Positions 38,855 to 57,502 of a stretch of 64,000 nucleotides of DNA are shown here, in pieces. Source of the DNA: Viola odorata. Taxonomy: Eukaryota > Streptophyta > Magnoliopsida > Malpighiales > Violaceae. The stretch spans positions 33,528,579-33,592,578 of the forward strand of contig OY829542.1 in assembly GCA_963691705.1 (NCBI GenBank), written 5' to 3'. A model generated the notes under the pieces. That model did no database searches, was not told the origin of the DNA, and saw only the letters and a list, made by a program, of their open reading frames with translations. Within the stretch, counting starts at the first letter, position 1, and the number at the start of each line of letters is the position of its first letter. A program made the translations under genes and the position numbers.

Positions 38855-38917
38855 TTTGGTTCTATTAAGTGAGCATCCTTAATAACCAAGCTCCTCCTCC
38901 CCGAAGCTAGAAGGATT

Positions 38918-39649: not shown

Positions 39650-39679
39650 CGTCCTCCTCGTAGGATCCCCAATGCTAAC

Positions 39680-42600
39680 GTGGGTCATCCGTTCAGCTAC
39701 CGTGTCAGGCACCACAGAGTCCATCGACATGTGAAACTCCCAGCAGAATCATATGATGGCACAAAAGATCCCATTTCTCACCTCAATAAGGTGAAGGATT
39801 TCGTGCAATTCCAAACGCGCAGTGATGCAGCATTGTGTCAACTTTTCGTAATGACGCTGTCAGGAGTGGCACGTCTATGGTTCGAGGGGCTCCCTGCCGG
39901 GTCTATCGATAATTTTTCTCAGTTGGAAGAAAAATTCAAAAGTCGGTTTAGCACGGCTATTCCTATCAGAAAGTCAGCAGCTGCGCTGTTCGATATCCAT
40001 CGAAAACCACAGGAATCTTTGAACGACTTCTTAGGTCGATTTGATCTTGAAATGTCCCTAACGCCAGGGGTCACTATCGATTTTGCGATTGAGGCCCTGA
40101 AACGCAATTGTCGATACAGTAAACTGAAAGATACGCTAACGGTGGACCCCCCAACGACCCTGGATGCGTTGAGGCTGAAAGCGCATAACTATGCGAGAAT
40201 GGAAGAGGAGGAAAATAGAGAATGGATCCGAGGCATGCCGACGGACCCATATGTGGCCCCTAACGTCCTGAACAGCAATGCCCTTGACGCTAAACTCACC
40301 GAGGATCACGGGCAGCGAAAAGAACATAATACTAAGACCTCTAACCGGCAGAGAGGCAATTTCTCAAAAGGAAGACCTGGAGGCTCCCCCACTCGGAAGC
40401 AAACGGACCCGCCAAAGGGCCGGATATACGATCCTGACCTCCCATCTCTCATACTCCCAAGGGCGGAGATCTTAGCAATAGTCCAACAGAGAAATTTGCC
40501 TATCCGCTACCCAGCTCCCGTGAAACCAGGAGTAATCATGGGAGGAAGAGAAAATGCATACTGCAAATTCCATAAGGTCAAGGGACATTCAACAGATGTA
40601 TGCAGAGAGTTAAAATCGGCTATAGAGCGATTGGTCGAAGAGGGCTACCTTGGGGAATTTGCCACAAAGGCAAGGGAGGAAGCCAGAAACAACCCAACTG
40701 GAAATACAACTGAGCAGAGGCAAGCGCCCTCGCACGCTACAGGGGCTAACGCAGTACCCCTCGGGCCAAATAGAGAAGCGCTCGCTATCGATAGCGACCA
40801 AATGCCCATGATAAATATCATTGCGGGGGGAGCACCCTATTGCGAGGAAATTATGCCGCGAACGCCCAACCCTGGAGAAAAGCGCAAATGGGAGAGCGCG
40901 CAAACGAAAATCGAGGCGATAAGTGCCTTAGACAGAATGATATTGTCTTTCTCAGAGGAGGACGAAAAAGGCATCGTCTTCCCGCATAATGACGCAATGG
41001 TTGTAACGCCCGTCATTGGGAGTCATGGGGTAAGAAGGACCCTTGTCGATAACGGGAGTGCAGTGAATCTATTTTCATTGAAAGCGTACAACTTGATGAA
41101 ACGACCTGACGGTGAGCTATCGTCTTGCACGAGGCCAATTATTGGGATTGATGGAGTACCGATTCCGGTAGCTGGAATAACATCCCTGCCGGTGTACTTC
41201 CGAGAAGACACATCCAAACGCTCCGAAGAGCTACTATTTTTGGTCGTAGACCTAACGTTACCGTATAATGCCATTTTGGGGCGACCATTCCTTAATCGTT
41301 TTGGAGTAGCCATATCTCAAAAACACCTGCGGATGAAATATCCCTCATGGGACGGCGTGGTCTCAATCAAAGGGGACCAAAAGCTGGCAGCCGAATGCTA
41401 CTTGCTTATGACTCAAAGGAGTTGTGACCGCTACGTTTGCGTGGCAGACGACCCTTTCGATGATAAAGAAGAAAAGCGCACTCAGCCGCTAGATCAGATG
41501 GTATCAATCCCTATCGGTAAGGATAGTGAAACGAATCTCTTAGCCAGTGAGAAACTAAGCCTTGAAGAGAACGCGCAATTAATCCGGTTGTTGAGGAAAT
41601 GCAAGGGAGAGTTTGCGTGGAAACCAGCAGACATGCCCGGAATCTCTCGGAAGGTCGCAGAACACCGGCTGAACGTTAGTCCTGACACCAAGCCTGTTCA
41701 ACAAAGGCGACGTGCTTTTTCATCGGAAAAGATAGCAGCCATCGAAAAGGAGTTGCTAAAGCTCACAGAGGCGGGGTTCATTCGAGAAGTCCAGTACCCG
41801 ACCTGGCTAGCTAATCCTGTGTTAGTCCCAAAGCCTAACGGGGACTGGCGCATGTGCATCGACTTTACTGACCTAAATAATGCCTGTCCTAAGGACTGCT
41901 ATCCCCTTCCGCGAATAGATCAGTTAGTCGATCAAACCGCTGGGTATGCTTATCTAAGCTCCCTAGATGCGAATTCCGGATATCACCAAATCCCTATGGT
42001 CGTAGAGGACGAAGAAAAAACTGCCTTCATCACTCCTAAGGCTACATACTGCTATACTGCAATGCCGTTTGGGCTAAAGAATGCTGGTGCAATATTTCAG
42101 CGTATGGCAAACAAAGTTTTTGAAAATCAAATCGGGAGAAATGTAGAGGCCTACGTAGACGACATCCTGATCAAAAGTCGGAGTTTCAGAGAACACCTCA
42201 CTGACTTGGAAGAAGTTTTCAATGTGATGAGAAAGCACAAGATGAAGTTAAACCCGCGGAAGTGCATGTTTGCATTCCAAACGGGAAAATTCTTGGGCTA
42301 TGTCGTCAGCCAGAAGGGCATCCAACCCAACCCGTCAAAGATAAAAGCCATCCAGGATATGATATCCCCGCGAACTGTCAAAGAGATACAGAAGTTAACC
42401 GGGCGCATCATTGCGTTGGGGCGATTCATATCTAAGCAAGGCGAGAGATGTTTGCCTTTCTTCAAAGTCATCCGAAACAAGGCTCCTTTCGGATGGACAG
42501 AGGAATGTGAGAAAGCGTTTGCAGGACTAAAAGCTTACCTATCATCAGATTTAGTGTTGACGAGGCCCGAGCCCGGCGACGAACTATATCTATATTTGGG

Positions 42601-43243
42601 AATAGCTGACGAGGTAGTCAGCGCCGTCCTTGTGCGAAGTGAAGGGCACATGCACCGTCCTGTATTCTTCGTAAGTCATATATTGAAAGATACCGAACTG
42701 CAATACGCTCCTATCGAGAAGATAACACTCGCTCTAGTACAGGCCACGAGAAAGATGGATCGATACTTCCAAGCCCACCCCGTCATTGTACTCACGGATC
42801 AGCCGTTGAGAAGAATCTTCAGAAAACCTGAATCTTCAGGAAGAATGCTAATTTGGGCTATCGAGCTCGAACAATACGGGCTGCAATACAAAGCTAGACC
42901 AGCCGTTAAGGCCCAAGCGTTAGCTGACTTCATAGCTGAGTGCACATTCACAAAGGACACAAAGATAGATCTGTTGGAGGAAGAAGCAGAAAGTCCATGC
43001 CTACCGTCTCCGGAGACATATACAGATACGTGGATCATCCACGTAGATGGAGCAAAAAATCAAGAATTAGCTGGCGCAGGAGTTTTCTTAGTTGGACCAA
43101 AGGCGTGGAGATGCGATACGCCATCAGAATCCTGCAGCCATTGTCCAACAATGCGGCTGAATACGAAGCGCTGCTGGCATGACTCAGAATTGGAAACAGT
43201 TTCTCTATCGGAGCCACTCCTGGTGTGGAGAAGGAAGACATAA
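39680..43243 (+). CDS. Element B Gag-protease-RT-RNase H polyprotein
   Basis: One frame of 1187 codons. Gag core: DFVQFQTRSDAALCQLFVMT, LWFEGLPAGS, with an unusual zinc knuckle CKFHKVKGHSTDVC near residue 293. Aspartic protease DNGSAVNLFS near residue 456. RT: DWRMCIDFTDLNNACPKDCY, SGYHQIP, catalytic YVDD at about residue 825. RNase H 1: LYLYLGIADEVVSAVL to LADFIAECTF. The second RNase H starts at WIIHVDGAKNQELAGAG; then a one-base deletion near 43101 (AAAGGCG for expected AAAGGGCG) sends the last ~45 codons out of frame. It continues in the next frame from EMRYAIRILQPLSNNAAEYE. It is best read as a polyprotein with a recent frameshift. Confidence 0.9.
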   Translation: MGHPFSYRVRHHRVHRHVKLPAESYDGTKDPISHLNKVKDFVQFQTRSDAALCQLFVMTLSGVARLWFEGLPAGSIDNFSQLEEKFKSRFSTAIPIRKSAAALFDIHRKPQESLNDFLGRFDLEMSLTPGVTIDFAIEALKRNCRYSKLKDTLTVDPPTTLDALRLKAHNYARMEEEENREWIRGMPTDPYVAPNVLNSNALDAKLTEDHGQRKEHNTKTSNRQRGNFSKGRPGGSPTRKQTDPPKGRIYDPDLPSLILPRAEILAIVQQRNLPIRYPAPVKPGVIMGGRENAYCKFHKVKGHSTDVCRELKSAIERLVEEGYLGEFATKAREEARNNPTGNTTEQRQAPSHATGANAVPLGPNREALAIDSDQMPMINIIAGGAPYCEEIMPRTPNPGEKRKWESAQTKIEAISALDRMILSFSEEDEKGIVFPHNDAMVVTPVIGSHGVRRTLVDNGSAVNLFSLKAYNLMKRPDGELSSCTRPIIGIDGVPIPVAGITSLPVYFREDTSKRSEELLFLVVDLTLPYNAILGRPFLNRFGVAISQKHLRMKYPSWDGVVSIKGDQKLAAECYLLMTQRSCDRYVCVADDPFDDKEEKRTQPLDQMVSIPIGKDSETNLLASEKLSLEENAQLIRLLRKCKGEFAWKPADMPGISRKVAEHRLNVSPDTKPVQQRRRAFSSEKIAAIEKELLKLTEAGFIREVQYPTWLANPVLVPKPNGDWRMCIDFTDLNNACPKDCYPLPRIDQLVDQTAGYAYLSSLDANSGYHQIPMVVEDEEKTAFITPKATYCYTAMPFGLKNAGAIFQRMANKVFENQIGRNVEAYVDDILIKSRSFREHLTDLEEVFNVMRKHKMKLNPRKCMFAFQTGKFLGYVVSQKGIQPNPSKIKAIQDMISPRTVKEIQKLTGRIIALGRFISKQGERCLPFFKVIRNKAPFGWTEECEKAFAGLKAYLSSDLVLTRPEPGDELYLYLGIADEVVSAVLVRSEGHMHRPVFFVSHILKDTELQYAPIEKITLALVQATRKMDRYFQAHPVIVLTDQPLRRIFRKPESSGRMLIWAIELEQYGLQYKARPAVKAQALADFIAECTFTKDTKIDLLEEEAESPCLPSPETYTDTWIIHVDGAKNQELAGAGVFLVGPKAWRCDTPSESCSHCPTMRLNTKRCWHDSELETVSLSEPLLVWRRKT

Positions 43244-43440
43244 CACGTTTAAAGATCCGAGGAGATTCCAAGCTAATAATGGATCAGGTTCTGGGGAACT
43301 CCCAAGCCAGAGAACCCATCATGGCCCAATACGTAGCCAAAGTGAAGCATGAGCTGTCAAAGATATAGGAAAAAGGCACCCGGGTCACCTTTGAGCACAT
43401 TCCTAGAGAAAACAATGAAGAGGCTGATAGCCTCGCCAAG
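43102..43440 (+). pseudogene. Element B second RNase H, middle part
   Basis: In the frame of the downstream integrase ORF: MRYAIRILQPLSNNAAEYEA, TGA at 43180-43182 followed by CTC (shared with element A), then LRIGNSFSIG, the active-site segment KIRGDSKLIMDQV, and a TAG at 43366-43368 where A has CAG. VTFEHIPRENNEEADSLAKM follows. This archaeal-type extra RNase H is a Tat-clade hallmark. Confidence 0.82.
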
Positions 43441-44790
43441 ATGGCAGCCAATCCGGAAGCCTCAATACCCAGTGACGTGCGCTATGGAGAACTGCCTACA
43501 CCTTCTTTCATGGAAGAGCAGGCATCGCTCTGTGTGGAAGAAATGGAAAATGATTGGAGGATCCCAGTGATAGAATATCTGAAACATGATAAACTACCGG
43601 GAGACCAGACAGAGAAAAAGAAAGTCCTAAAACGGGCAGCACGATGCACATATTATAACGGAGAGTTAATACGAAGATGTTTCTCCCATCCGGCCGCTAA
43701 ATGCATAACGGAGCAAGAAGGCTTACATGTGTTACGTGAAATTCACGAAGGGATATGTGGCATGCACATTGCTAGCGATACTCTGGCAGCCCAAGTCTTT
43801 CGGTCGGGATTTTACTGGCCCACCATTCGACGAGATTGTCATAACTTCGTGAAAACCTGTCAGAAATGCCAGGAATATGCTAAGATTCCTCGAAAGCCTG
43901 TTGTGCCAATTTCAGAAATAGTGGCTCCGTGCCCGTTTGCAAAATGGGGGATTGACATCCTGGGCCCGTTTCCAAAGGCCAGATCTCAGTTAAAATTTGT
44001 GGTCGTAGCGGTAGACTACTTCACAAAGTGGGCCGAAGCTGAGGCGTTAGCTACCATCACCGCCGAAAAAATTTGGCATTTCTTCAATCACCAAGTCATC
44101 ATGCGATTTGGAGTACCACGCGTGCTAGTTAGCGACAACGGGACACAATTTACAAGCCAGTTCTTCAGGGATCAATGTGCAGAGTTCCAGATAGAGCAAA
44201 GATTCTCCTCTGTGGCACATCCCCAAACCAACGGCCAGGCGGAAGTAACCAACCGCAGCATCCTCAGTGGCATCAAAAGAAACTTGGAAGGGTCCAAGAA
44301 GAAATGGCCAGACGAATTGCCATATGTACTATGGGCCTACCGCATGACTGTCAAGGCCAGCATGGGAGAGACCCCATTCGCGTTAGCATTCGGAACCGAA
44401 GCTGTCACACCAGTCGAGATTGGCATGATGAGCCTCCGGGTGGCTCACTTCAAAGAAGAAAACAATGAAGAAAGGTTACGAGCTAACCTCGATACTCTAC
44501 CAGAAACACACGAGGAAACCCTCCTGAAAACCCTGCACTACAAGAGGAAAATGGCACAATATCACAACCGGCAAGTGAGGGAGCGATTGCTCAAAACCGG
44601 AGATTTAGTGCTCAGAGACAGGCGGGCAGCAGGACAACGTATGGGAAAACTCAGTCCAAACTGGGATGGACCGTATCGTGTCACCCGCATTGTGGGAAAA
44701 GGAGCATACCATCTGGAAACGCTCGAGGGAACGCCCCTGCAGAACTCTTGGAACATTGCTCGGCTGAGGTTATACCACGCCAGGAGCTAA
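43441..44790 (+). CDS. Element B integrase (with RNase H 2 tail)
   Basis: 449 codons, intact. The first ~20 residues belong to the RNase H tail (AANPEASIPSDVRYGE). Zinc module: HEGICGMHIA...CQKCQEYAKIP near residues 100-145. DDE core: D in KWGIDILGPF (~171), D in LVSDNGTQF (~231), E in NGQAEVTNRS (~268). The GPY-like C-terminal domain has KLSPNWDGPYRVTRIVGKG and ends SWNIARLRLYHARS. The ATG is internal; in life the protein would be cut from the polyprotein. Confidence 0.9.
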   Translation: MAANPEASIPSDVRYGELPTPSFMEEQASLCVEEMENDWRIPVIEYLKHDKLPGDQTEKKKVLKRAARCTYYNGELIRRCFSHPAAKCITEQEGLHVLREIHEGICGMHIASDTLAAQVFRSGFYWPTIRRDCHNFVKTCQKCQEYAKIPRKPVVPISEIVAPCPFAKWGIDILGPFPKARSQLKFVVVAVDYFTKWAEAEALATITAEKIWHFFNHQVIMRFGVPRVLVSDNGTQFTSQFFRDQCAEFQIEQRFSSVAHPQTNGQAEVTNRSILSGIKRNLEGSKKKWPDELPYVLWAYRMTVKASMGETPFALAFGTEAVTPVEIGMMSLRVAHFKEENNEERLRANLDTLPETHEETLLKTLHYKRKMAQYHNRQVRERLLKTGDLVLRDRRAAGQRMGKLSPNWDGPYRVTRIVGKGAYHLETLEGTPLQNSWNIARLRLYHARS

Positions 44791-44879
44791 TCGGGTAACA
44801 TCAAAGTTATTCTAATAAATGAATATTGAGATATTCACTATGCGTTTGCTACTGGTAATATGCAGGTAGCGAAGAATGC

Positions 44880-45195
44880 CAGGAGTGAAAATCCTATCCT
44901 TGCGGCAACCGTGCTCACATAGACGGCCCGTTAAGATGAGGCACGCCCCGGAATCCTTGGGAGTGAAATCCTATTCTTGTGGTAACCCCATAAGGAGAGG
45001 CACGCCCCAAGGAGAGACCAACTCCGTCCTGGAAGTGAAAATCCTATCCTTGTGGTAACCGTGCTCACATGGACGGCCCATTGAGACGAGGCACGATTCC
45101 ACGGACGTGAGGTACAACGCTTGGGGGTGAAAAGTCCTATCCTTGTGATGGCTGGTCCTAATCAGACAGCTCACTAAGACGAGGCACTCCCCAAA
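44880..45195 (+). repeat. Array of four ~80-bp units in the 3' region of B
   Basis: Same family as the six-unit array of A: GAGTGAAAATCCTATCCTTG to GAGGCACGCCCC, starting near 44880, 44959, 45031 and 45123. The second unit is shortened. Confidence 0.85.
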
Positions 45196-45583
45196 GCCTA
45201 TCTATGGCGAAAAGAAACAAAGATATCCCAACTAGTAGCCGCGCGGTTGATACCCGGTGAAGCGATGTTGGAGCCTATCTGTGGCGAAAGGAAACAAAGA
45301 AATCCTAACTAGTAGCCGCGCGGTCGATACCCGGTGAAGCGATGTTGGAGCCTATCTGTGGCGAAAGAAAACAAAGAAATCCTAACTAGTAGCCGCGCGG
45401 TCGATACCCGGTGAAGCGATGTTGGAGCCTATCTGTGGCGAAAGAAAACAAAGAAATCCTAACTAGTAGCCGCGCGGTTGTTACCCGGTGAAGCGATGTT
45501 GGAGCCTATCTGTGGCAAAAAGAAACAAAAGAAATCCTAACTAGTAGCCGCGCGGTTGATACCCGGTGAAACGATGACGGAGA
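45196..45583 (+). repeat. 77-bp tandem repeat, five copies, in element B
   Basis: Unit starts at 45196, 45273, 45350, 45427 and 45504, a constant 77-bp period. Each begins GCCTATCTGTGGCGAAA and contains CTAACTAGTAGCCGCGCGGT and GATACCCGGTGAAGCGATG. Copies 2-4 are almost identical. Element A has only one diverged copy (32700-32760), so the amplification is specific to B. Confidence 0.95.
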
Positions 45584-45966
45584 GGTGACCATACTGCAAC
45601 AACAACGTTGAAACAGACGTAAAGCCCCCTCTGACAATGAGGGACGGCAGGAATATGAGTGCAGCAGATGCGGAAGCAACACTGATTTACTCTCAGAAAG
45701 GCTATCGGAGGATATAATGGACATGCTACTTGAATGCAGCTGATGAAAAGCTAACGGGATACAACACGAAACTATGTGTCTATGGAAACCTAACGCCAAA
45801 CGTCCCATGCTGACAAATGATCAAACGGCATTATGAAGAAAAGTAGATAAAGAACTTCTATCCAAAAAGAGTGGATTAGCCAAGTCAAGGCCGACATCGT
45901 TTAAAGTACAAAATATGGACGGGCCCGTCAGCCACAAAAATGTAAAACATCTAAACAACAAAAAGT
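45584..45966 (+). other. Noncoding stretch between repeats and g2 of B
   Basis: No gene. It is probably the 3' untranslated region of antisense g2 meeting the 3' noncoding region of pol. Nothing else recognised. Confidence 0.4.
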
Positions 45967-48258
45967 CTAAAGATTGGGCGGCGCGTTGACCCCTCCTTGC
46001 TGAGCAGCCTTCCACTGGTAGAAACCGCTATCAGTAATGGTTGAGGCTCTCTTGTCAAAATACGTAGAGAGATCGTCAATACGGAGCTCCTCAACTCCAT
46101 AATGATGCATCACGGCTTCTGACATGATTCCCCCACCCTGCTCTAAGTACCAACGATTCTTCTCAGCGTTAAGGGAGGAATCGGCAGATAGCTCAGCGTT
46201 TCTCTGTCTCTCCAGACGTAGGCTATTCTCCTCCTGAGAGAGGCGTATGGCCAGATCAGCGCGTTGTCGCTTCTCCTCCTCCAAAGCCAACTTAGCGGCC
46301 TCCAACTCTTGTTTAACCGCGGTAGCCTCTCCCCGAGCAGTCTCCATACCTTCGTTGGCAGCAGCAAGGGCATTTTCAAGACGTTGTCGCTCTTCCAGCA
46401 GCCTGTTTATCTCTCCTTGCCCGTTAGCTGCAGCTCTGGCATTCTCCTCATCCATATAGTGAAGATGGTAAAGTATAGAAAATGCCTGAGAGCGAAGGAA
46501 ATTGATGCGCCCCTGCTCGCCCCGAGCCACAAAGGCATCCCTCTCTCTTGGAAGAGACAAAATCTCTGCCACCAGATAAGCGGTAGAGGAAATCACGGTC
46601 TCATGATCAGCATCGGCAGGAAACTGCAGAATACTGTCCCTAAAGGAGCGTAAGCTAACGTGATGAGTCGGCAGGAGAGGAGGCTCGTATGGAGAGATAC
46701 CAGCCATTAAGGCAGGGGCGGGGCCACCCCTCGCAATAGTTGGATGAGGCATCGGAACAAAGAACAATGCACCAGGAGAAGCTGGCCGGCTAGTGGAGCC
46801 CTCCACATTAGGCATTGAGACCTCATTACCTCCGGGCACCTCAGGATTAAGGGCATCAGAATCATAGCCTGTTGGGGTGTGCGCAGAATGAATCAGAGAA
46901 CCAGGAGGCACATGGGGTTGGCCGCCAAAATCAACAGGTTCAGATTGATCAGCAGACGCACCCTCGCCCCCAAGGACACTCGAACTACGGTTGGCGGCCG
47001 AAGAAGAAGGGCTATTCTTAAGATCATAGCGAGCCTTCTTCTGACGCTCGCGAAGGACATCGGCGATACCCATATCTCCCTGGGAGGTAGAGGGGACAGA
47101 AGCAGCAACCACTTCCTAAATAACGCAGAACGTGATAAGGAAACCGTGCAAAAAGAAAGACAAAAGTTTTAAAAATAAGAAAAATGCTCACCTGAGTGGT
47201 GGAGGACACAAGAGGAATCCCAACAGGAATCGGATCAACCGTAGCCTCTGAAGAGACAACGGTCTGGGACGAAACGGATGGGCAGCACGTGCTTTCCTAG
47301 GCCGTTTCTGTCTTACAACCCGAGGGCCCGTAACGTTAGCGGTAGCAGTGGCCTCCTCTTCCTCGGCGTTAGCAGCAGCAGCAGCAACCCTAGCTTCAGC
47401 GGCAGCTTTCTTTTTCGCCTCCTGTTTCCTTCTCCTCCGGAAATACTCGGGCTCCCAACCAAGCGAAGGCACTGCACAGTCACAAAATGTTAGCGTTAGT
47501 ACTTCTTGACAGCGTAAAGGAAAAAGGTTAAACGCTCACCCTTCTTGCACTGTTCCACGGGCAACCCGTTGGCCACTTTTCGGGCATCAACACTAAAATC
47601 AAATTGAAGCAGCGTCTTCAACCAGCCATCCTCCGGGTCGGAAAAGGGTTTCCGATGACCCCAAGCCCCATCTTTAATTGTTTCGTTGAAGCCAACCCTC
47701 CACAACGGCTCAGGCAGATCAACAATAAAAAATTCCTCTTTCCAGTGAGGAATAGAAGACTCAATGCCCATAAGTTTCCAGGTAAAGGGCTTCAAAGAAC
47801 CGTCTTCGTAGCGAGGCGATATCGATATCACCCCTTTACAGGAATACAATTGGAAAATGTCATGAAGCAACGCTAAAGTGGGAGATTCTATTCCCTTGAA
47901 ACGGCACAGTGCGGCAAAAGCACTAACAACGCAAATTGCGTTAGGACTCAACTGAGCTGGAGCCAAATCAGAATCAGCCAACAACAATTTTACAAACGGG
48001 TCAAGAGGGAGACGAAACCCATGATCGAAGAGCTTAGCATACAGCATTCTACTATTTCAGGGCAAAATGTTGTTCAGTCGAAGCGACTCAGAAGCAGGAT
48101 GCACGGGATATTCCTTGGGAAATCGTGCAGAAAACCCAGCAAGTCTACGGTTAATTAAGGGCAGCGTGTACAGAGAAGTGGGAGTAGTATCAATTACTTC
48201 TTCCCCGGAGGACCTTTGAGGGTCTCCTTCTTCAGAGGATTTCTTAGTTCTAGCCATG
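45967..48258 (-). CDS. Antisense gene g2 of element B (three exons)
   Basis: Start ATG 48258 (MARTKKSSEEGDPQ). Exon 1 (to 47540) has a domain like the 'putative gypsy type transposon' family: GFRLPLDPFVKLLLADSDLA, PNAICVVSAFAALCRFKGI, HWKEEFFIVDLPEPLWRVGF. A TGA near 48062 replaces the Asp seen in A (LPDNSR). Intron 1 is 47472-47539 (GTGAGC...TGTGCAG, 68 bp), exon 2 codes VPSLGWEPEYFRRRRKQEAK and an alanine-rich basic stretch; intron 2 is 47116-47191 (GTGAGC...TTATTTAG, 76 bp). Exon 3 (to 45967) is disordered, then a long coiled coil (GEINRLLEERQRLENALAAA, KLALEEEKRQRADLAIRL) and the tail EELRIDDLSTYFDKR. A one-base frameshift is likely late in exon 2. Function unknown; paralogous to g1. Confidence 0.7.
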
Positions 48259-50357
48259 CCTAACAAGGAAGAAACAAAGAGAAAAGAAAAAGGACGTGTA
48301 CCTTGTACCTTCGTGAAAGAGAATGCGAGGAGTCGAAGGGTTACCTTTGAAGCGGGCCGCAAATCCAGAAATGAAGGCCTCCAGAACTCTCTTCCTCCAT
48401 AACTCTTCCTTTAATGACGCCCTAGCAGACCCCTCATCTCGAGCAAGTATCTCTTCACGGAGAAAAAGATTTTTCTTCTTTTCTAGCGCCAATTCCGCCT
48501 CCAGAACTTCTATCTTGGCTTTCCCGATAGATTTTTCTCTGTCCAATTCCGTTTGGGACGATTCACAAAGACGCGTCAGCAACCTAGAGTGCTCCACCGC
48601 CTTCTCAAGCTGCACCCTTGCAACACACAACGCGCTGGAAAAATTACGTGACTCGCGATCGTGAATTTCGAATTGATAATTCAGATGGCGGAAGAAGTCC
48701 AGAGAATCATTCAGAACATGGCGAAAGCGTGTCGAGGGAGGGAGTTGAAGAAATTCCTCTTTCTCCTTTTTTGAACTCAGCATCTCTCCTATCAAGGGTG
48801 CAGTAAACTCATCTCGAGAAAAAGGTTGGGGAACCCCGACAGCGCGAAGGGCATCAAAGTAAAACCCTGCAAGATTCATACGGTAGGCCGGGACCCCGTC
48901 AGGACCAAGATTGATTGAGGGAGGCGGAGAAGAGCCCTGAGGAAAAATACTCTTGAAAGGAGTAAAAAACAGTTGCGGAGTAACCTTAGGCGGTAGCTCA
49001 GCAGTCAAATCCGCCACAGGAGGTGTGACCACTACGTCAGGAATACAATGAGCAATCGGAGAATCGGGAGCGTCAGATATGGGAGGAGGACATTCCATCG
49101 GTAGGCCCTCTCCCTCAGAAGAACAAGTTTTTTCCAACGCCTCAGCGGCTTCCGTTGGCTGAGAGGCGCCCGCCTCAGACAAAACAGCAGGCGTAGAAAC
49201 AGTTGCCACATCCACAGGAGATGTCCCGGTAGCTTGTCCACTAGTGGCCACTCGAAGTTTTTTCCGACGCTGGGAAGCAGCAAGGGAAGAAGCGTGGCAA
49301 AGGTCTGACTTAGCATCCACATCTTCATCATCGCTAGTAATTACCGTCGTTGAGACAGGCCTGGAGCCCGTCCCTTTGCGACGCTCCGGTAGCCAATTTT
49401 CCACAAAGCGAGAAGTTCATACAGAGCTAACGGGCCTTCGACCTCCCCGGGCAACCGTTTTAGTTCTCTTCCTCGAAGGAGGAACGCCACCCCGACTTGA
49501 GCCCTCGGCCGAAGGCGAGGCCGGTAAGGTTTGAAGCGGTGTTACGTTCAGAGGAGCACCAGTGTCACCTGCGAATCAACCGTTAGCTTCTTATAGCAAA
49601 CAAAGCGTGCGAGGACCAAAGTAAAGAAAATATGGAAAGAAATAGGCTCACTCATAACGCACTCTTCCAGAGGCTTGAATAGAGCAAAGGCACGAATACG
49701 GTAGTGGGTATTCTCGTCTAACAAAGTGTTAGCCTGGTCCAACTCAGTTCTGGACAAAATTGCGGGATTTGTCCAAACGGGACCTATCAGTTCCTGATTG
49801 ACATTGATACGCCACAAACGTGACGGTAGCTCCAGAACAAAGAAGTTGCTCTTCCAATCAGCTACACCCTTCTTGAAGCCGTGAAAACGTTGCCAAAACG
49901 ACTGCACGAGCGCATCATCCCACCGGGGAGTAATCTCGATTAAACAATTGTAGCAAATCATGCTAAAGAATTTGCGAAACAAATTGATAGATGGGGTAAA
50001 AATGTTCTTCAACTCGCAAGCGCGAAGAAAAGCATAAACCGCACACCAAGAGGAAGGAGTTATCTGGGCAGGATTAAGGCTATACTCCCGCAGCAGAGTT
50101 AGTATCGACTCATGAACGGGAAAGCGAAAACCATAAAGGAACATTTTAAAATAAAGAAGCCTACTGTGGCCCCACCCTGGATTATGAAGCCGCATATCAC
50201 TTCCGGGAATAAAAGGCTCATGCCCAGGAGGAAAGGTAATACCATGTTCCTCCAATTCGGCTTTCAGAACCACATCGCAGGTAAAAATACTCGGTGATTG
50301 GGCGACCTCGGGATCCATGGGCCTAGAGATAATCTGGCGAGGTCTATTCCTAGCCAT
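48250..50357 (-). CDS. Antisense gene g1 of element B (two exons)
   Basis: Start ATG 50357 (MARNRPRQIISRPMD). Exon 1 (to 49652) carries the same 'putative gypsy type transposon'-like domain as g2: LLYFKMFLYGFRFPVHESIL, AQITPSSWCAVYAFLRACEL, WKSNFFVLELPSRLWRI. An 83-bp intron (49569-49651, GTGAGC...TTCGCAG) follows; splicing gives ECVM-S-DTGAPLNVTPLQ in frame, and the A copy splices in frame to GDIDGQ...APLNVV. Exon 2 has one TGA near 49421, a disordered linker, DEFTAPLIGEMLSSKKEKEE, and a coiled coil (RVQLEKAVEHSRLLTRL, KIEVLEAELALEKKKNLFL). The 3' end overlaps the start of g2 by 9 bp. Nuclear or DNA-binding role is speculation. Confidence 0.72.
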
Positions 50358-50536
50358 AGCAAACCAACAAAAAAGGAAATCTGAGAAGGGACGAATTGAT
50401 ACCTTAAAGGAGAAGAATCGCAGAGAAATCGGCGGACAGTGACGAGCGGCCGAAAAGGTATTCGGAGAAGAAGACGAAGGAAGACAAAAAGGAAAATTCG
50501 AAGTGAGGGCAAAAGTTTTGAGAAAATGGAGAATGG

Positions 50537-50620
50537 CCCTTCTTAAAGGATAAAAATGCCACCGCATTAATTGAGTCACCAATCGGGCGAAGACGCGTGT
50601 AAAAGAAGTTGGCCACGTGG
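50537..50620 (-). promoter_or_regulatory. Candidate promoter of g1 in B (G-box and TATA-like)
   Basis: GGCCACGTGG, a perfect G-box core, at 50611-50620, and a TATA-like TCCTTTAAGAAGG at 50539-50551 on the minus strand, 180-260 bp before the g1 ATG. Both recur at the same spacing upstream of g1 in A. Confidence 0.5.
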
Positions 50621-50854
50621 AAGCGCACTAAAGAAATTTGAAGAAAGAGAAGTTATTCGTCGAGACTCCCCAAAAGGGCGAGACAGTATTGACCCAGTCA
50701 GAGTAACCGCGAAGCGATTGCCTCAGTCAGGCCAACCACTTGCGTTAGCTATCACCAAGAACCAGCAGGCTAACGGAAATAACGACAAAATTGAAAAGGC
50801 AGAAAACATCATTTTATTCATAAAACGCCAATAGGCGGGTACAATGCAAAACGG

Positions 50855-51277
50855 CTAATCCTCATCAGGCCAGTAAATGCCATGGTGATAAACCCCGTCA
50901 TCATCAAGGAAGGGCATCTTCCCGTCAGCATTCGGGACAGGCTGGTCTACCTCCCTTTCTGGGCAGGACCCTAACGGGCATGACTTTTCTTTGACACTCG
51001 AATCTGCCAACCCCGCACCAGCACTGGTGGGAAAATCCTCGTTCAGCGAGCAATCAGGGGAAGAAAAACGTTTGCCACCCTCTTGAATAGCAGAACCAGA
51101 AGAAGCCAAAGTCGCAAAGGGCGTCGGGGAAGTCCGTTTCCCCTGCCTCTTACGACCCTTTCGGCGGACCAGAGGCCTCCATGGTGGCGAAGGAGGGGGA
51201 TGATCTGAGTCCGGCGAAGTCGGGGGAGTCGGCAAGGAGTCGCGATCCATGGAACTTAAGAAATAAAAATCTGCCAT
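50855..51277 (-). CDS. Antisense gene g3 of element B
   Basis: 140 aa from ATG 51277 (MADFYFLSSMDRDS); the A homologue starts MADSYFLD, supporting this start over the longer frame. Domains: a proline-rich segment (TPPTSPDSDHPPPSPPW), a very basic patch (LVRRKGRKRQGKR) like a nuclear localisation signal, then an acidic C-terminus (DDDGVYHHGIYWPDED). No family recognised. A TATA box lies 67-74 bp upstream. It is followed on its 3' side by an A/T-rich stretch (minus TTTATGAATAAAATGATG near 50808-50826) that could hold a poly(A) signal. Confidence 0.65.
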   Translation of the reverse strand: MADFYFLSSMDRDSLPTPPTSPDSDHPPPSPPWRPLVRRKGRKRQGKRTSPTPFATLASSGSAIQEGGKRFSSPDCSLNEDFPTSAGAGLADSSVKEKSCPLGSCPEREVDQPVPNADGKMPFLDDDGVYHHGIYWPDED

Positions 51278-51343
51278 GTGACCTGCAAAAGCAAAAAAGA
51301 AGGAAAAGGATGAAGATGAACAGGAAAGGGAAACCAAACTCCC

Positions 51344-51351
51344 TTATATAA
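51344..51351 (-). promoter_or_regulatory. TATA box of g3 in B
   Basis: The minus strand reads GGTTATATAAGGG, a good plant TATA box, about 70 bp before the g3 ATG. The A copy has TATTTAATGG at the corresponding site (54649-54655). Confidence 0.6.
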
Positions 51352-51763
51352 CCGAGTAAGCACTTCGATCCCTGAAAAATCAATTAAGACGCTTGGGAAA
51401 AATAACTGCAATTGCAGAATCCGATCCGTCACAGGCGCATCTGCTCGTTGAACGCACCAATCAAAGGGCACCAAAGAACCGCCCAACCACCTGCCACTGA
51501 AAAGACGACCCTGTAACAGTCAAGACAGAGCATTCATTGCTAATTCCCGGAACACGACCACTACAATACAATGTCCCGAGGAAGACCCATTTTCAGTTGG
51601 GCTCATGACAAATATTTCCAACCAATAAAGCAAGCAACCACGCAAGAAAAAGAGAAGACTTGGGAAAAAGCAGAGACAGTTATTTATTTATGGCCAGGTG
51701 GCCTTAGCGTTCAAATATGTACAAGAAGCATAAGTAAAACAACAGAAGAAGCGAAGCCAGCAG

Positions 51764-52144
51764 TCAGATATTGGACCCCGCATCATCTTCCCCTGGCACA
51801 ACGGGAACCTCCGTAAGCGTTAGCGACGGAGGTCAGTTCGGAAGAGCAAGCTCTCATGCCCTTTAGGCAGCAGGCCAGCAGATCTTTCCTCTGCTGCAGC
51901 ATCGAGGCCACCACATCAAGGTGGGCACTGATAGTGGCCAGTTTCGCCAAACTCTCTAGGGGATTAAAATCCTCCAGAGTTATTCCAGTTGTCTAGACAG
52001 AATAGGGGTTAGCACCCCCTGCAACTCCAGGACATCCTCGGAGGTCTTGGTGATCATCCTCTCCAAGAAGCCGATATCACCCTCAGTAAGATTCTTCAGG
52101 GTCAGAGTTTTAGAGATCAGGAAATTGCGAATCAGTTCATCCAT
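51764..52144 (-). pseudogene. Antisense gene g4 of element B, frameshifted
   Basis: Start ATG 52144 (MDELIRNFLISKTLTLKNL). The N-terminal half (GDIGFLERMITKTSEDVLEL, QGVLTPILSRQ) is intact, then a frameshift gives an early stop at 51980. The rest aligns with A in other frames down to a stop at 51764 (PGEDDAGSN at the end, GSHA in A). Predicted to be almost all helical. No family recognised. It lies between two copies of CATTTTCAGTTGGGCT (51588 and 52320). Confidence 0.65.
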
Positions 52145-52204
52145 GGCGAAATATGAAAAGAAAGAACGTGAAAATACGAAGAAACTGGCACAGAGAAACC
52201 TCTG

Positions 52205-52212
52205 ATTTATAG
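52205..52212 (-). promoter_or_regulatory. TATA box of g4 in B
   Basis: CTATAAAT on the minus strand, 61-68 bp upstream of the g4 ATG; the identical box is at 60086-60093 in A, also about 60 bp upstream. Confidence 0.65.
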
Positions 52213-52337
52213 ATCCTAACAAAAAACCGTCAGGACCATCTTCTGAGGCAAAACCGCCCCGGTACTTAAAGGGACTCTCCGTAAGAGAAGGAACGTTAGC
52301 CCTTGGTAAACACTGGGCTCATTTTCAGTTGGGCTTA

Positions 52338-52909
52338 TGATAACAATCCACCTAAAAGAAAGGGTATTTTCGTCTATCACCCGGTGGGAAGAGGCATAGC
52401 TACTGTTTCGCACCACCACGGTAGGGACAAGATTGCTACCTTCCCCAAAGGCTAACGCTACAAAGGCTAACGGGGCCCTACCGGCTCCTCTCACGGACCT
52501 CCTGCTTGGCTCAAGGAGTTATCTCACCCCTAGAGGAAACCACGCGTCAGGATTAACGCTCCGGCCATTATCCTACCGTGGCAATATCTACCTACGCCCC
52601 TACCGCCAAGGTAGCGTATCATGATAAGGGCGAACCACAGACCCTAACGCGAGCGATAGCTCCGTACCCATTTACTCGGGCGGGAACGCCCCCTTTCTTC
52701 TATAAATACCTCCCCCACAAAGGAGGCAGGTAAACGGACTTGACTGGCCAAAACTCTGTCATTTTCAGTACATCTACTGACTTAAGCATCGGAGTGTTTC
52801 CTCCGGAGACCCCCTCCGGTGCATTGCAGGTACTGTGGACCGTCGCGCACACTGATCTGAGAAGAGCTGCTACGCCATACATCCTTCGGCAGAAGACAAA
52901 TTATTATCA
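52338..52909 (+). repeat. 3' LTR of element B
   Basis: 572 bp, same length as the left LTR and about 96% identical by eye. Its upstream flank is CATTTTCAGTTGGGCTTA, not a clean polypurine tract. Confidence 0.94.
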
Positions 52910-52976
52910 CCTGGCAAGGGAATATGTGAGAACAACAAAAAGTAGGAAAGGGGAACGAGAAGTAAGACAAACTCAC

Positions 52977-53682
52977 CCATAACGCACTCGTTCAGAAGCT
53001 TGTATGAGGCGAACTCCCGAATGCGATAGCGTGTACTCTTATCTAGCAAAGCGTTAGCTTGATCCAACTCATTTCTAGTCAGTACCACCGATTTTGCCCA
53101 AAGGGGACCTATAAGCTCCTGATTGAAACCACAACGCCACCAACGGGACGGTAACTCAAGAATGAAAAAGCTCTTTTTCTAGTCAGCCACAACCCTCTCA
53201 AAGCCACAAAACCGCTGCCAGAACGACTGCACAAACGCGTCATCCCACCTTGGAGTAATACTGATTAAACAATTGTGACAGGTCATGCTAAAGAATTTGC
53301 TAAATAAATTGAGAGATGGGGCGAGAATGCCCTCCAACTCGCAAGCGCGAAGAAAGACATAAGCCCCACACCAAGAAGAAGGAGTTATCTGGGCAGGATT
53401 AAGCTTGTATTCCCACAGTAGTGCTGTTATTGAAGTATGGACGGGGAGGCGGAAACCATAGAGGAACATTTTAAAATAAACCAATCTATAGTTCCCCCAC
53501 AACGGATCGTGGAGACGCATGTCACTCTCAGGAACGGTAGGGATACACCCAGGAGGGAAAGTGATGCCGTTCTCCTCCAGTTCAGCATTTAAAACCGCAT
53601 CGCAGGAAAAAATACTGGACGATTGCACGATTTCTAGATCTACGGGCCTCCAGAGGAATCTTTTGGTTCTAGTGACAACCAT
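52977..53682 (-). pseudogene. Antisense gene g1 of element A, exon 1
   Basis: Start ATG 53682 (MVVTRTKRFLWRPVD), aligned with B's MARNRPRQIISRPMD. Same domain: LVYFKMFLYGFRLPVHTSI, AQITPSSWCGAYVFLRACEL, TPRWDDAFVQSFWQRF. A TAG near 53180 (VAD-stop) replaces Trp of B (VADWKSNFF). The frame continues to NECVMG and the donor GTGAGT at 52971-52976. The acceptor is at 52911-52914, now the insertion point of B; the original intron was about 66 bp. Confidence 0.78.
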
Positions 53683-53850
53683 AATAAACTAATGAACAGA
53701 AAATCTGAAGGGATGAAGTGATACCTTGAAAGGAAAGATTCGCAGGCAAATCGGCAAAGGGCGGGGGATGGACAAGAACCTTTTCCAGAGAAGGTGCAGA
53801 GAAGAATGAAAATTTGAAATAAGGGCAAAAAGTATTAGAAAGAGAAGATA

Positions 53851-53935
53851 ACTCCTTTTTAAAGGACCAAATATCACTGCATTAATTGAACTACTAGTCG
53901 TGCGAGGATGCATGTAAAAGAAAGGGGCCACGTGG
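53851..53935 (-). promoter_or_regulatory. Candidate promoter of g1 in A (G-box and TATA-like)
   Basis: GGCCACGTGG at 53926-53935 and, on the minus strand, TCCTTTAAAAAGGAG at 53852-53866. These are the same two motifs in the same order as in B, although the surrounding sequence has diverged. Confidence 0.5.
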
Positions 53936-54144
53936 AATCGTGCTCAGAAGTTATAAGTAAGTAGTTATTTGCCAAGCGGCAGTTAATGATTGGCCGAGCC
54001 AAACCATTGCGGAACGTTTGGCTCAGCAAGGCTAACGCCTCCATATCAGCCATCAACAAAATAACACGATAGCAAGAGAAAGAAAACATCAAGTTTACTT
54101 GTTAAAAGCCATACGACACTTACAACACCCCTAACGCTAGGCCA

Positions 54145-54577
54145 CTAATCCTCATCAGGTCAGTACATGTCATAGTAAAAAACGTCATCATCATCCGAGA
54201 GCGGCAGACCTCCATTGAAAGGAGGAAAAGGTTCGTCAACCCTTTTTTCCTGACCCAGCAATGCCGAGCTCGGCCCGTCTGCAACGCTAGCAACCGTTGT
54301 ACCAGAACCTGTGTCAGAAAGAAAATCTTTTGCCAAGACAAGAGTCACAGAAGGAAGTTGTCCATTGTCCTTTCGTGCGGAGAAAGCGGAAGGGACATCA
54401 ACTGCCTCAGAAGTCTCCTTCCTTAGTCTCTTGCGGCCCTTCCGGCGGACTAGCGGCCCTTCCGGCGGACTAGCGGCTTCCATGGAGGAGATGGAGGAGG
54501 ATGATCCGAATCGGGCGAAGTTGGAGGAGTCGGCGGGGAGTCACGCGCCACAGTATCAAGGAAATAGGAATCTGCCA
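54145..54577 (-). pseudogene. Antisense gene g3 of element A
   Basis: Start ATG 54577 (MADSYFLDTVARDS), with the same TPPTSPDSDHPPPSPPW and LVRRKGRKR segments as B. A 20-bp direct duplication (CGGCCCTTCCGGCGGACTAG twice, about 54435-54474) repeats the basic patch and shifts the frame. Near the end TGG has become TGA (DMY-stop, against GIYWPDED in B), with the old stop at 54145-54147. Confidence 0.65.
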
Positions 54578-54709
54578 TTGATACACAAGCAATCCAAGAA
54601 AAGAAATAAGAAGAAGAGGGTGAATGAGAAAAAGGAAAGAAAACCCCATTAAATAGCTGAGGCAAAAGGATATCCCGATCTCTTTGCGTGTCCCTTGAAA
54701 ACAATAAGT

Positions 54710-54714
54710 ACACC
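54710..54714. repeat. Left target-site duplication of solo LTR C (ACACC)
   Basis: ACACC before TGTCGCGCCC; the same 5-mer follows ATCAACA at 59266-59270. Confidence 0.9.
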
Positions 54715-55630
54715 TGTCGCGCCCCCACGAAAATTAAAAACTCGCGAGTGTGCAACGAAATTTGGGACCTTACAATGCTCAGCGTAGACAGACGCCTCGC
54801 AACATGCAATGAAGTCGCCACCCTAATTTGGTTGCTAGGCTTTAGGGAACCTTAATCGTCATGGCATAGAAAATATAATAAGTAAAAAAACTAAAGGCAC
54901 AAAAAAGGGGTCTGGACCCCAGACAAAAGGTTCGGGGTCGTATTATGGTCTCGGGAAGGTGTTAGGCACCCGAGTCACATCCGAAAACGGTTACCGGTTG
55001 ATGAGAGAGGTGTTTAAAAGGTGTTTTGATGAAAATGCGTTTTATTTTGAAAAAGGGGGCCCTCAGAGGAATCGTCACTTTGGCCTTTTCCACAATCGGG
55101 ACCGTTCAAAAATAATAAAAAAGATCTTTCGGACGGGGTTACCGTTTATCAAGATCCGTCTATTATTCTTGACCGTAACGTGATGGGACTGAATTTTCTG
55201 TAAGACTGAATGAGCGCCCTCTTATTTCATCATCGGGCCATGCATGATTAGATTGATTGCTATGTGAACCTATCATGGATTGCTAACAGAGTACCAATTT
55301 TAAATGATTGGTTTTTGAAGTGGAAAACTGATGTGGGATCGAAAGTCCCCATGTACATGCAGTCAATATATGAGAGAATTTAAAATCACATGAATATGAC
55401 ATTTGAAGCGACTCTTTAAACACGTTGTTCATGTGGGTTGATTTTAATTCTAACAGTTCTATATATCATGCGTACGACTGCTATTTTACGAAAAAAAGCG
55501 CTGAATAAATAAAAGGGAATCGAAAGGCGTACTTTCGAGCGAAGCTTGAATTTAAAACCTACAAAGTGAGAGTATTAGTGATAGCTTGAGAAAGAAGTAA
55601 ACAATTTTATGAGTGCGAAAATTTAAATGA

Positions 55631-57172
55631 CAGTTGATTGCATACGAGAAATGATGATTTTTGCGTATATGAAAGTGAGATGCTGGGTTTGACAAAAATG
55701 ATGACAGTTGTTTGTATGCGAAAAATGATGGATTTTACGTATACGAGAATTTAAATGCTGAGCTGATTTGCATGCGATAAATGATTGATTTTACGCATAC
55801 GAAATTTAAATGTTGGGTTGATCGTATGTGAAAAATGATTGATTTTACACATACGAGAATTTCAATGCTATGGTGATTGCATGCGAAAAATGATTGATTT
55901 TACGCATGTGAGAATTTTAACAGTGCTACGTGATTGCATGCGAAAAATGATTGATTTTAAGCATGTGAGAATTAAAATGCTACGTTGATTGCATGCGAAA
56001 AATGATTGATTTTAAGCATGTGAGAATCTAACATCTACGTGATTGAATGCGAAAAATGATTGATTTTAAGCATGCGAGAATTAAAATGCTACGTGATTGC
56101 ATGCGAAAAATGATTGATTTTAAGCATGTGAGAATTAAAATGCTACGTGATTGCATGCGAAAAATGATTAATTATTACAACAAGTTTAGTAATTAATTAT
56201 TACCCCATACATGCAATTAAAAGTAGCGGACAATTGATCGTCACATACGAATGCATGCGAAAAATGATTGATTTTAAGCATGTGAGAATCTAACATCTAC
56301 GTGATTGCATGCGAAGAATGATTGATTTTACGCATGGGAGAATTAAAATGCTACGTTGATTGTATGCGAAAAATGATTGATTTTAAGCATGTGAGAATCT
56401 AACATCTACGTGATTGCATGCGAAGAATGATTGATTTTACGCATGGGAGAATTAAAATGCTATGTTGATTGTATGCGAAAAATGATTGATTTTAAGCATG
56501 TGAGAATCTAACATCTACGTGATTGCATGCGAAGAATGATTGATTTTACGCATGGGAGAATTTAATATCTACGTTGATTGCATGCGAAAAATGATTGATT
56601 TTAAGCATGCGAGAATTAAAATGCTACGTGATTGCATGCGAAAAATGATTGATTTTAAGCATGTGAGAATTAAAATGCTACGTTGATTGCATGCGAAAAA
56701 TGATTGATTTTAAGCATGTGAGAATTAAAATGCTACGTGATTGCATGCGAAAAATGATTGATTTTAAGCATGTGAGAATTAAAATGCTACGTGATTGCAT
56801 GCGAAAAATGATTGATTTTAAGCATGTGAGAATCTAACATCTACGTGATTGCATGCGAAGAATGATTGATTTTACGCATGGGAGAATTAAAATGCTACGT
56901 TGATTGTATGCGAAAAATGATTGATTTTAAGCATGTGAGAATCTAACATCTACGTGATTGCATGCGAAAAATGATTGATTTTAAGCATGCGAGAATTAAA
57001 ATGCTACGTGATTGCATGCGAAAAATGATTGATTTTAAGCATGTGAGAATTAAACATCTACGTGATTGCATGCGAAGAATGATTGATTTTACGCATGGGA
57101 GAATTTAATATCTACGTTGATTGCATGCGAAAAATGATTGATTTTAAGCATACGAGAATTTAACAGTTGGAT
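55631..57172 (-). repeat. ~54-bp tandem array in solo LTR C
   Basis: About 27-28 units of roughly 54 bp, each with GATTGCATGCGAAAAATGAT then TGATTTTAAGCATGTGAGAA and a variable AT-rich end. Left-hand units are more diverged (TACGAGAATTTAAATG); central units fall into types (AAGCATGTG, ACGCATGGG, AAGCATGCG) that alternate in blocks, for example at 56249-56560. A 75-bp non-repeat segment interrupts at about 56170-56250. Confidence 0.93.
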
Positions 57173-57440
57173 AATTTGCAGAAAGTAGAGAGTTGATATT
57201 TGCAAAAAATAAAACAATTGATATTTGCAGAAAATAAAGCAGTTGATATTTGCGGAAGGATTTCCAGCAGTTGTGCGAAAAATTAAAGCAGTTGATATTG
57301 CGGAAAATAAAACAATTGATATTTGCAGAAAATAAAACAGTTGATATTGCGGAAGGATTTCCAGCAGTTTTGCGGAAAATTAAAGCAGTTGATATTGCGG
57401 AAATTAAAGTGCGACCGTCCATGTAGGCGGTAAAAATAAA
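57173..57440 (-). repeat. Degenerate AGTTGATATTTGCGG repeat in solo LTR C
   Basis: Irregular repetition of CAGTTGATATTTGCAGAAAA with an embedded longer unit (GCGGAAGGATTTCCAGCAGT) present at 57251 and 57350. Transitional between the flanking arrays. Confidence 0.75.
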
Positions 57441-57502
57441 CAACTGAATTTTTAAATTGCAGAAAATAAAGTGCGGAAATTTAAAGTGCTAAGAATTAAA
57501 AC

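What the first reader, a model, noticed from the sequence alone, without database searches (positions are those of the whole stretch)
45967..52144. Four-gene antisense cluster carried by two related Tat-type retrotransposons
Seen: downstream of pol, both A and B carry g4, g3, g1 and g2 in the same order, all opposite to gag-pol. Together they fill over 6 kb, more than a third of the element. Proteins align between A and B through motifs (for example PSSWC-YVFLRACEL, TPPTSPDSDHPPP, TKTSEDVLELQG) although the LTRs have diverged strongly. Known: antisense extra ORFs downstream of pol have been reported in some Tat-lineage elements. Inference: a four-gene set with introns and separate promoters is more elaborate than a single antisense ORF and may work as a regulatory or host-interaction module.
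Basis: partly seen in the sequence, partly recalled or inferred. Interest (0 to 1): 0.88.

Follow-up and report, generated by a model that had tools for sequence, protein, structure and literature searches.

The report
Spliced antisense gene pair in retrotransposons
Two nested plant retrotransposons carry four protein-coding genes on the strand opposite to their replication genes, including a pair of old sister genes with predicted introns; antisense genes are known in this group, but the paired, intron-bearing form was not found described in the papers searched.

Summary
A (38261-52909, TSD CCTGG) sits inside B (25662-60817, TSD GGGGT). Downstream of pol both carry minus-strand genes in the same order. 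X and Y are paralogs (32% identity over 170 residues) and both match Pfam PF04195 (TRP28). Antisense TRP28 ORFs are a published hallmark of Retand elements (PMC11963269), so the kind is known. Six paper searches listed no report of the tandem X-Y pair or of an intron behind the TRP28 exon (same position and phase in 7 of 7 further TRP28 loci read). Across 22 copies from the window's own genome, variants shared between copies have N/S over site ratio 0.10-0.33 per gene piece; N/S falls from 1.69 (private) to 0.67 (shared; Fisher 1.5e-11). A nuclear regulatory role is plausible but untested; no RNA data.

The parts
38261..52909 (+). Element A: LTRs 38261-38832 and 52338-52909 (K2P 0.036), TSD CCTGG; gag-pol 39680-43243 and 43441-44790
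25662..60817 (+). Element B, interrupted by A: LTRs 25662-26242 and 60237-60817 (K2P 0.041), TSD GGGGT
49652..50357 (-). Gene X exon 1 (A): ATG to phase-1 donor; PF04195 (TRP28)
   Evidence: (E 3.8e-10)
49569..49651 (-). Gene X intron (predicted), 83 nt, GTGAGC...CGCAG
   Evidence: donor GT 21/21, acceptor AG 20/21 copies
48253..49568 (-). Gene X exon 2 (A): basic/proline-rich linker then charged C-terminus; one in-frame stop private to A; the natural C-terminus is deleted in A
47540..48257 (-). Gene Y exon 1 (A): PF04195; one in-frame stop private to A
   Evidence: (E 4.8e-9)
47472..47539 (-). Gene Y intron 1 (predicted), 68 nt, same position and phase as the X intron
   Evidence: GT 21/21, AG 21/21
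47192..47471 (-). Gene Y exon 2: strongly basic (RRRRKQEAKKK, KRPRK); frameshift in A relative to B
47116..47191 (-). Gene Y intron 2 (predicted), 76 nt
   Evidence: GT 21/21, AG 21/21
45967..47115 (-). Gene Y exon 3: glutamate/arginine-rich C-terminus
50855..51277 (-). g2b, 140 aa: proline-rich N-terminus, basic RRKGRKR, acidic C-terminus
51786..52144 (-). g2a in A (frameshifted)
59644..60027 (-). g2a in B, open (127 aa); predicted two-helix hairpin
52977..53682 (-). Gene X exon 1 in B (one in-frame stop); A is inserted at the splice acceptor of this gene
36989..38256 (-). Gene X exon 2 in B (several in-frame stops)
33283..36753 (-). Gene Y remains in B: two 1.74-kb tandem copies, TRP28 domain truncated
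54145..54578 (-). g2b in B (frameshifted)
50613..50620 (-). CCACGTGG box upstream of X; TATA-like TTTAAGAAGG at 50547; in B CCACGTGG at 53935 and TTTAAAAAGG at 53863
   Evidence: box 19/21, TATA-like 15/21 copies
51344..51350 (-). TATATAA upstream of g2b (TATTTAA at the aligned place in B)
   Evidence: 22/22 copies
52205..52211 (-). TATAAAT upstream of g2a (also B, 60092)
   Evidence: 22/22 copies
51683..51688 (-). AATAAA downstream of g2a (in B at 59564); another at 50818 downstream of g2b in A only
45195..45576 (.). 77-bp tandem array (4.9 copies) between pol and gene Y

Best explanation
The region is the antisense accessory-gene block of Tat/Retand-type LTR retrotransposons, here in an expanded form. 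Four genes are read opposite to gag-pol: two old tandem paralogs, X and Y, each a TRP28 exon followed by an intron, a basic linker and a charged tail, and two small proteins, g2b and g2a. Each has promoter-like sites of its own (those of Y only in sister copies; A has lost that spacer). Shown: the genes, their paralogy, shared intron positions at sequence level, and protein-level constraint over the block. Inferred: the mRNAs are made from these antisense promoters and spliced. The replicating RNA carries the introns in reverse, so splicing cannot remove them during retrotransposition; the antisense orientation therefore lets the element keep intron-bearing, separately promoted genes. Inferred, weaker: X and Y act as a nuclear, possibly DNA- or chromatin-associated pair that tunes the element's own expression or a nuclear step of its cycle, as HBZ-type antisense proteins do in deltaretroviruses.
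For: PF04195 in both X and Y. Exon 1 homology X-Y over 170 residues without gaps, E 5e-35, and weaker tail homology, E 8e-6. In A-X, B-X and A-Y the donor lies two codons plus one base behind a conserved Cys. In 7 of 7 further TRP28 loci read (L001-L005, L007, L008; 30-54% identical to A's X exon 1; five of them one related group) a GT donor lies at the same place and phase, with an AG acceptor; in the five X-type loci it enters a clearly conserved exon 2. A-B dN/dS 0.14-0.40 per piece, 0.26 over 1,316 codons; 0 of 500 random placements as low for each antisense gene piece except Y exon 2 (5 of 500). Across 22 copies, N/S 1.69 for private and 0.67 for shared variants, p 1.5e-11. X-type and Y-type rows fall on opposite sides of a well-supported branch, with members outside A and B; a Y-type exon lies behind 4 of 5 further X-type loci. 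Promoter-like sites shared by A and B for X and g2a and recurring in copies. Basic NLS-like clusters in g2b, X exon 2, Y exons 2 and 3.
Against: No RNA or protein data; splicing and promoters rest on sequence. Splice dinucleotides vary less than the rest of the introns in the A family, but not significantly (1 of 12 vs 62 of 215 sites, P 0.107). The copies are closely related, so recurrence of promoter motifs in them is weak evidence; the motifs had no shuffle control. The private/shared contrast is significant for g2b, X exon 2, Y exon 1 and Y exon 3, not for g2a, X exon 1 or Y exon 2, and is not corrected for the tree of copies. The TRP28 model was useless (pLDDT 44.7), so DNA binding was not tested. 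Heptad periodicity of the tails was not beyond shuffles (49 and 24 of 200 for X and Y), so coiled coil and pairing are not shown. One of two copies chosen by LTR-junction DNA lacks X, so X may be dispensable or supplied in trans. dS between A and B is high to saturated.
Confidence: 0.6

Rival explanations
1. The antisense transcription itself is what matters: RNA complementary to the genomic RNA forms dsRNA or interferes with sense RNA, and the reading frames are incidental.
For: Antisense transcripts would overlap the 3' part of the genomic RNA; the idea is discussed in PMC7264820 (text parts 1-2 of 3 read).
Against: The block shows amino-acid-level constraint in the minus-strand frames, and the intron position is kept while the exon diverges to 30-54% identity. 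An RNA role in addition is not excluded.
Confidence: 0.12
2. Passenger cargo: once-captured host genes that ride along and decay without function for the element.
For: A and B carry stops, frameshifts and deletions in these genes; one sampled copy lacks X.
Against: The stops in X exon 2 and Y exon 1 of A are private to A. No stop inside in 133 of 150 X exon 1, 145 of 150 Y exon 1 (172 residues) and 128 of 150 g2a best matches (my count from the listings, which are ranked by protein score and so biased to open frames). Shared variants are depleted in nonsynonymous changes. X and Y types occur beyond A and B.
Confidence: 0.07
3. X and Y are structural or transport factors (for example for nuclear entry of the pre-integration complex or a particle component) rather than regulators of expression.
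For: Basic NLS-like clusters; Grande GENE23 is nuclear (stated in PMC7264820); a role in nuclear entry is raised there.
Against: Nothing found here separates this from a regulatory role.
Confidence: 0.3
4. No introns: X and Y exons are separate genes or ORF fragments, as ORF-based surveys would list them.
For: No cDNA; splice-site conservation within the A family alone is not significant.
Against: The A-B match of X exon 2 starts at the codon behind A's acceptor, hundreds of bases before the first ATG of that frame in A; same position and phase in X, Y and 7 of 7 further loci; in P0124 and P0125 TRP28 and a charged tail, judged by eye, lie in one protein.
Confidence: 0.06

Closest known systems
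Retand-lineage antisense TRP28 ORFs (Vicient 2025, PMC11963269; text parts 1-3 of 5 read)
   Same: Antisense ORFs with PF04195 between pol and the 3' LTR; long POL-3'LTR region; tandem arrays; other antisense ORFs with Smc-like domains.
   Different: That survey lists 57 TRP28 ORFs of at least 600 nt; I count 56 clusters marked plain YES in its Table 1, so about one element at most with two long TRP28 ORFs. The word intron does not occur in its main text. Its longest POL-3'LTR region is 6,566 bp (6,556 in its table); A has 7,547 bp after losing about 630 bp. Here there are two TRP28 paralogs with predicted introns plus two small genes.
Maize Grande gene23 (Gomez-Orte et al. 2013; not read, known from PMC7264820 and PMC11963269)
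   Same: One antisense gene in the 3' internal region, own promoter, nuclear protein.
   Different: One gene in those summaries; four genes here, two of them paralogs with predicted introns. Whether gene23 has introns could not be checked.
Silene Retand ORF3/ORF4 (Kejnovsky et al. 2006; not read, known from PMC7264820 and passages of PMC11728184)
   Same: Extra ORFs, ORF4 antisense with TRP28; an amplified tandem repeat (title) in the element.
   Different: Whether ORF3 and ORF4 are two exons, two genes or paralogs could not be checked.
HTLV-1 HBZ and other retroviral antisense genes (abstract starts in the listing; summaries in PMC11963269 and PMC7264820)
   Same: Antisense gene near the 3' end; works-like comparison only.
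   Different: No sequence relation tested. The HTLV antisense promoter lies in the 3' LTR; here the promoter-like sites lie in the internal region.

Membership tests
Retand (Tat clade) LTR retrotransposon | Antisense TRP28 (PF04195) coding region between pol and 3' LTR | tested here: met
   E 3.8e-10 (A-X), 4.8e-9 (A-Y), 1.3e-10 (B-X), above the curated cut-off
Retand (Tat clade) LTR retrotransposon | RT groups with Retand RTs in a phylogeny | not tested
Retand (Tat clade) LTR retrotransposon | Additional RNase H (aRH) between RH and INT | tested here: inconclusive
   PF13456 partial match just before INT in A, 20.1 bits, below its 21.6 cut-off; no hit in the B piece
Retand (Tat clade) LTR retrotransposon | Long POL-3'LTR region, often with tandem arrays | tested here: met
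   7,547 bp in A; 77-bp array 45195-45576
Retand (Tat clade) LTR retrotransposon | 5-bp TSD (usual in plant LTR elements, so not specific) | tested here: met
   CCTGG and GGGGT
[quoted passage not shown]
   one 1,187-codon ORF in A runs from gag through RT and RNase H
PF04195 Transposase_28 | Profile match over the curated cut-off | tested here: met
   36.8, 40.3 and 41.8 bits against 26.2
HBZ-like antisense regulator | Protein regulates sense transcription of the element | not testable with these tools
   needs expression experiments

The most novel reading that the evidence does not exclude
X and Y are an obligate two-component antisense regulator duplicated in an ancestor of several Retand-type families, and the conserved intron works as a strand check: full proteins can arise only from the element's antisense mRNA. 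The antisense orientation is then an adaptation that lets a retroelement own spliced, independently promoted genes, and many ORFs listed separately in earlier surveys (TRP28 and Smc-like) are exons of one gene.
Probability: 0.3. Interest if true: 0.75.

Novelty: new variant of a known kind. Interest (0 to 1): 0.55.

Why it matters
Why Retand elements keep antisense genes is left open in the papers read (PMC11963269, PMC7264820). The shared intron and the X-Y pair turn it into testable predictions: spliced antisense mRNAs, one TRP28-to-tail protein per gene, co-occurrence of X and Y, and introns in the antisense genes. It also suggests that ORF-only surveys may split single genes and undercount TRP28 genes.

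Tried and rejected
TRP28 fold: the AlphaFold model from four sequences was too poor to search. g2a: a two-helix hairpin (pLDDT 73.5) with no PDB fold match at E 1e-3 or better; the HDAC-complex rows at E 0.03-0.04 are ordinary for long helices. No sequence relative of the TRP28 region or g2a in PDB at E up to 1. No relative of X exon 1 in IMG/VR (3 pattern matches, none confirmed), so a viral source gained no support. A first protein search with X exon 1 found none of 95 candidates; a control with the integrase found 1,525 of 5,459, several named as plant proteins, so the collection holds plant elements; a profile with wider length limits then found 5 of 5,137, all PF04195. Heptad periodicity was not significant for X or Y. 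The copy analysis and the exon-2 windows used a wrong frame for X exon 2 and are superseded. One search had an index error and is superseded. Considered and rejected: g2a and g2b as exons of one gene (own TATA-like boxes, AATAAA between them in A, about 5 kb apart in B); a splice joining X to Y in A (21 sister copies have a 711-739 bp spacer there).
Full report
Anatomy. Element A spans 38261-52909, with 572-bp LTRs (K2P 0.036) and the target duplication CCTGG. It lies inside element B (25662-60817; 581-bp LTRs, K2P 0.041; GGGGT). A has gag, RT and RNase H in one 1,187-codon ORF, then an integrase ORF. A sub-threshold RVT_3 match sits just before the integrase. From the end of pol to the 3' LTR, A has 7,547 bp.

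Gene models. On the minus strand of A, from the 3' LTR inward, are g2a (52144-51786, frameshifted), g2b (51277-50855), gene X (exons 50357-49652 and 49568-48253) and gene Y (exons 48257-47540, 47471-47192 and 47115-45967). X and Y exon 1 both match PF04195 and align without gaps over 170 residues at 32% identity, E 5e-35. Their tails align at 23% over 194 residues, E 8e-6.

Introns. In A-X, B-X and A-Y a GT donor lies two codons and one base behind a conserved Cys. In the sister copies of the A family the donor GT is kept in 21 of 21 for each of three introns, and the acceptor AG in 20, 21 and 21 of 21. Within this family alone the depletion of variants at splice dinucleotides is not significant (1 of 12 against 62 of 215 sites, P 0.107). 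The stronger evidence is comparative. I read 7 of the 8 loci that came with the PF04195 search (L001-L005, L007, L008; L006 was left out because its match is truncated). In 7 of 7 a GT donor sits at the homologous place and phase (in L005 the Cys itself is a Ser). In the five X-type loci, which are one related group, the acceptor leads into the same exon-2 start (PLNVVP, then F or L, then QTLPPSP). Two Y-type proteins from public assemblies of unstated organism (P0121, P0122) run past the Cys in residues compatible with a GTAAGT donor (inference from residues only). A inserted at the acceptor of B's X.

Selection. Between A and B, dN/dS per piece is 0.14-0.40, and 0.26 over 1,316 antisense codons. 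Random placement of the same substitutions never gave a pN/pS as low in 500 trials for any antisense gene piece but Y exon 2 (5 of 500). dS is high (gag-pol pS 0.777, saturated), so the exact ratios are soft. Within the A family I compared 22 copies: 20 of the 150 best X exon-1 matches, spread over the list, plus 2 of the 40 LTR-junction matches. Variants seen in one copy should be mostly post-insertion; variants shared by two or more mostly arose in the active lineage. Private variants have N/S 454/268, shared ones 124/186 (Fisher 1.5e-11, not corrected for relatedness). Scaled by site numbers, shared variants give g2a 0.13 and 0.33 (two pieces), g2b 0.23, X exon 1 0.10, X exon 2 0.31, Y exon 1 0.13, Y exon 2 0.23 (first part only) and Y exon 3 0.20; private ones give 0.17 and 0.98, 0.58, 0.18, 0.68, 0.55, 0.61 and 0.64. 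For X exon 1 the sample was picked by protein similarity, so its private value is biased; the other genes were not picked. Individually the contrast is significant for g2b, X exon 2, Y exon 1 and Y exon 3 (p 0.039, 0.0014, 3.7e-5, 1.1e-4) and not for g2a, X exon 1 and Y exon 2.

Presence. In 22 copies the pieces found at more than half length are: g2a 22, g2b 20, X exon 1 21, X exon 2 21, Y exon 1 22, Y exon 2 21, Y exon 3 19 (several stretches end inside Y exon 3). The order is the same in the 20 copies for the pieces found there. The copy without X (L060) came from the LTR-junction search. Loose genome-wide first looks gave 13,784 (X exon 1), 13,206 (Y exon 1) and 6,903 (g2a) candidates, which are not copy numbers; 150 each were scored, and 133, 145 and 128 of them, the window's own included, had no stop inside by my count. 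These lists are ranked by protein score.

X and Y as an old pair. A tree of 20 TRP28 exon sequences puts the eight X-type rows on one side of a branch (99/97); the seven Y-type rows group at 88/86. X-type rows come from A, B, a further group of elements in this genome and one public assembly protein; Y-type rows from A, that further group and two public assembly proteins. A Y-type exon lies at the expected place behind 4 of 5 of the further X-type loci (L061, L062, L063, L065; none found in the 1.7 kb of L064). The duplication therefore predates the split of A, B and that group.

Promoters. X has CCACGTGG and a TATA-like TTTAARAAGG in A and B; in copies the box is in 19 of 21 and the TATA-like site in 15 of 21. 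Upstream of Y, CACGTG occurs in 21 of 21 copies, mostly at about 200 and 340 bp; A has lost this spacer (87 bp against 711-739 bp). TATAAAT upstream of g2a and TATATAA upstream of g2b are in 22 of 22; B has TATAAAT for g2a and TATTTAA for g2b. The copies are close relatives, so only the A-B agreement carries weight. AATAAA follows g2a in A and B and g2b in A. None of this was tested by RNA.

What is known. Vicient 2025 (PMC11963269; text parts 1-3 of 5 read) reports antisense TRP28 ORFs in 97% of Retand clusters, 104 antisense ORFs in its 63 clusters, and a proposed regulatory, DNA-binding role. Vicient and Casacuberta 2020 (PMC7264820; parts 1-2 of 3 read) describe Grande gene23 as nuclear with its own promoter, and call for attention to spliced antisense transcripts. 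Neumann 2019 (PMC6317226; section 13 and passages read) gives TRP28 in 23% of Retand elements. No title or abstract start in the listings reports a TRP28 intron or an X-Y pair. Many subscription papers are not held; of three relevant older papers I tried one by identifier (not held) and did not read Gomez-Orte 2013 or Kejnovsky 2006, so this absence is weak.

Mechanism. The genomic RNA carries the antisense genes reversed, so their introns cannot be spliced out during replication. This follows from established splicing and reverse-transcription logic and explains how the introns can persist through many rounds of copying. That X and Y are nuclear regulators rests on basic clusters, the published nuclear localisation of GENE23, and analogy; it is the weakest step.

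Noticed in passing
51588-51606, 52320-52338, 59465-59483, 60219-60237 (+): A 19-bp motif (CATTTTCRGTTGGGCTYAT) occurs four times in the window at up to 3 mismatches: at each 3' LTR boundary (primer position for plus-strand synthesis) and again 732 or 754 bp upstream in both elements. The pair recurs 736-741 bp apart in 22 of 22 copies. It may be a second polypurine-tract-like primer or an antisense promoter element.
   Followed up: partly
38256-38260 / 52910-52914: Element A inserted at the splice acceptor of gene X in element B.
   Followed up: partly
33583-37086: B carries a 1.74-kb tandem duplication covering the end of X and a truncated Y.
   Followed up: partly
55712-57163 and 57165-57649: B has a 54-bp satellite-like array (about 27 copies) and 25-bp arrays between g2b and g2a, in an AT-rich stretch with no counterpart in A.
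   Followed up: no
498-8397 (-) and 10975-17597 (+): Two further Ty3-type elements in opposite orientation, Athila-like by recall only; both have ORFs downstream of pol in the sense direction (four tried, no Pfam hit), and the second carries a tandem duplication with 648-bp spacing.
   Followed up: no
L060: A family copy that keeps g2a and Y but lacks X and most of g2b.
   Followed up: no
G000:C2:52335539 and 52337763: Two PF04195 matches 2.2 kb apart on one strand, possibly another tandem TRP28 pair.
   Followed up: no
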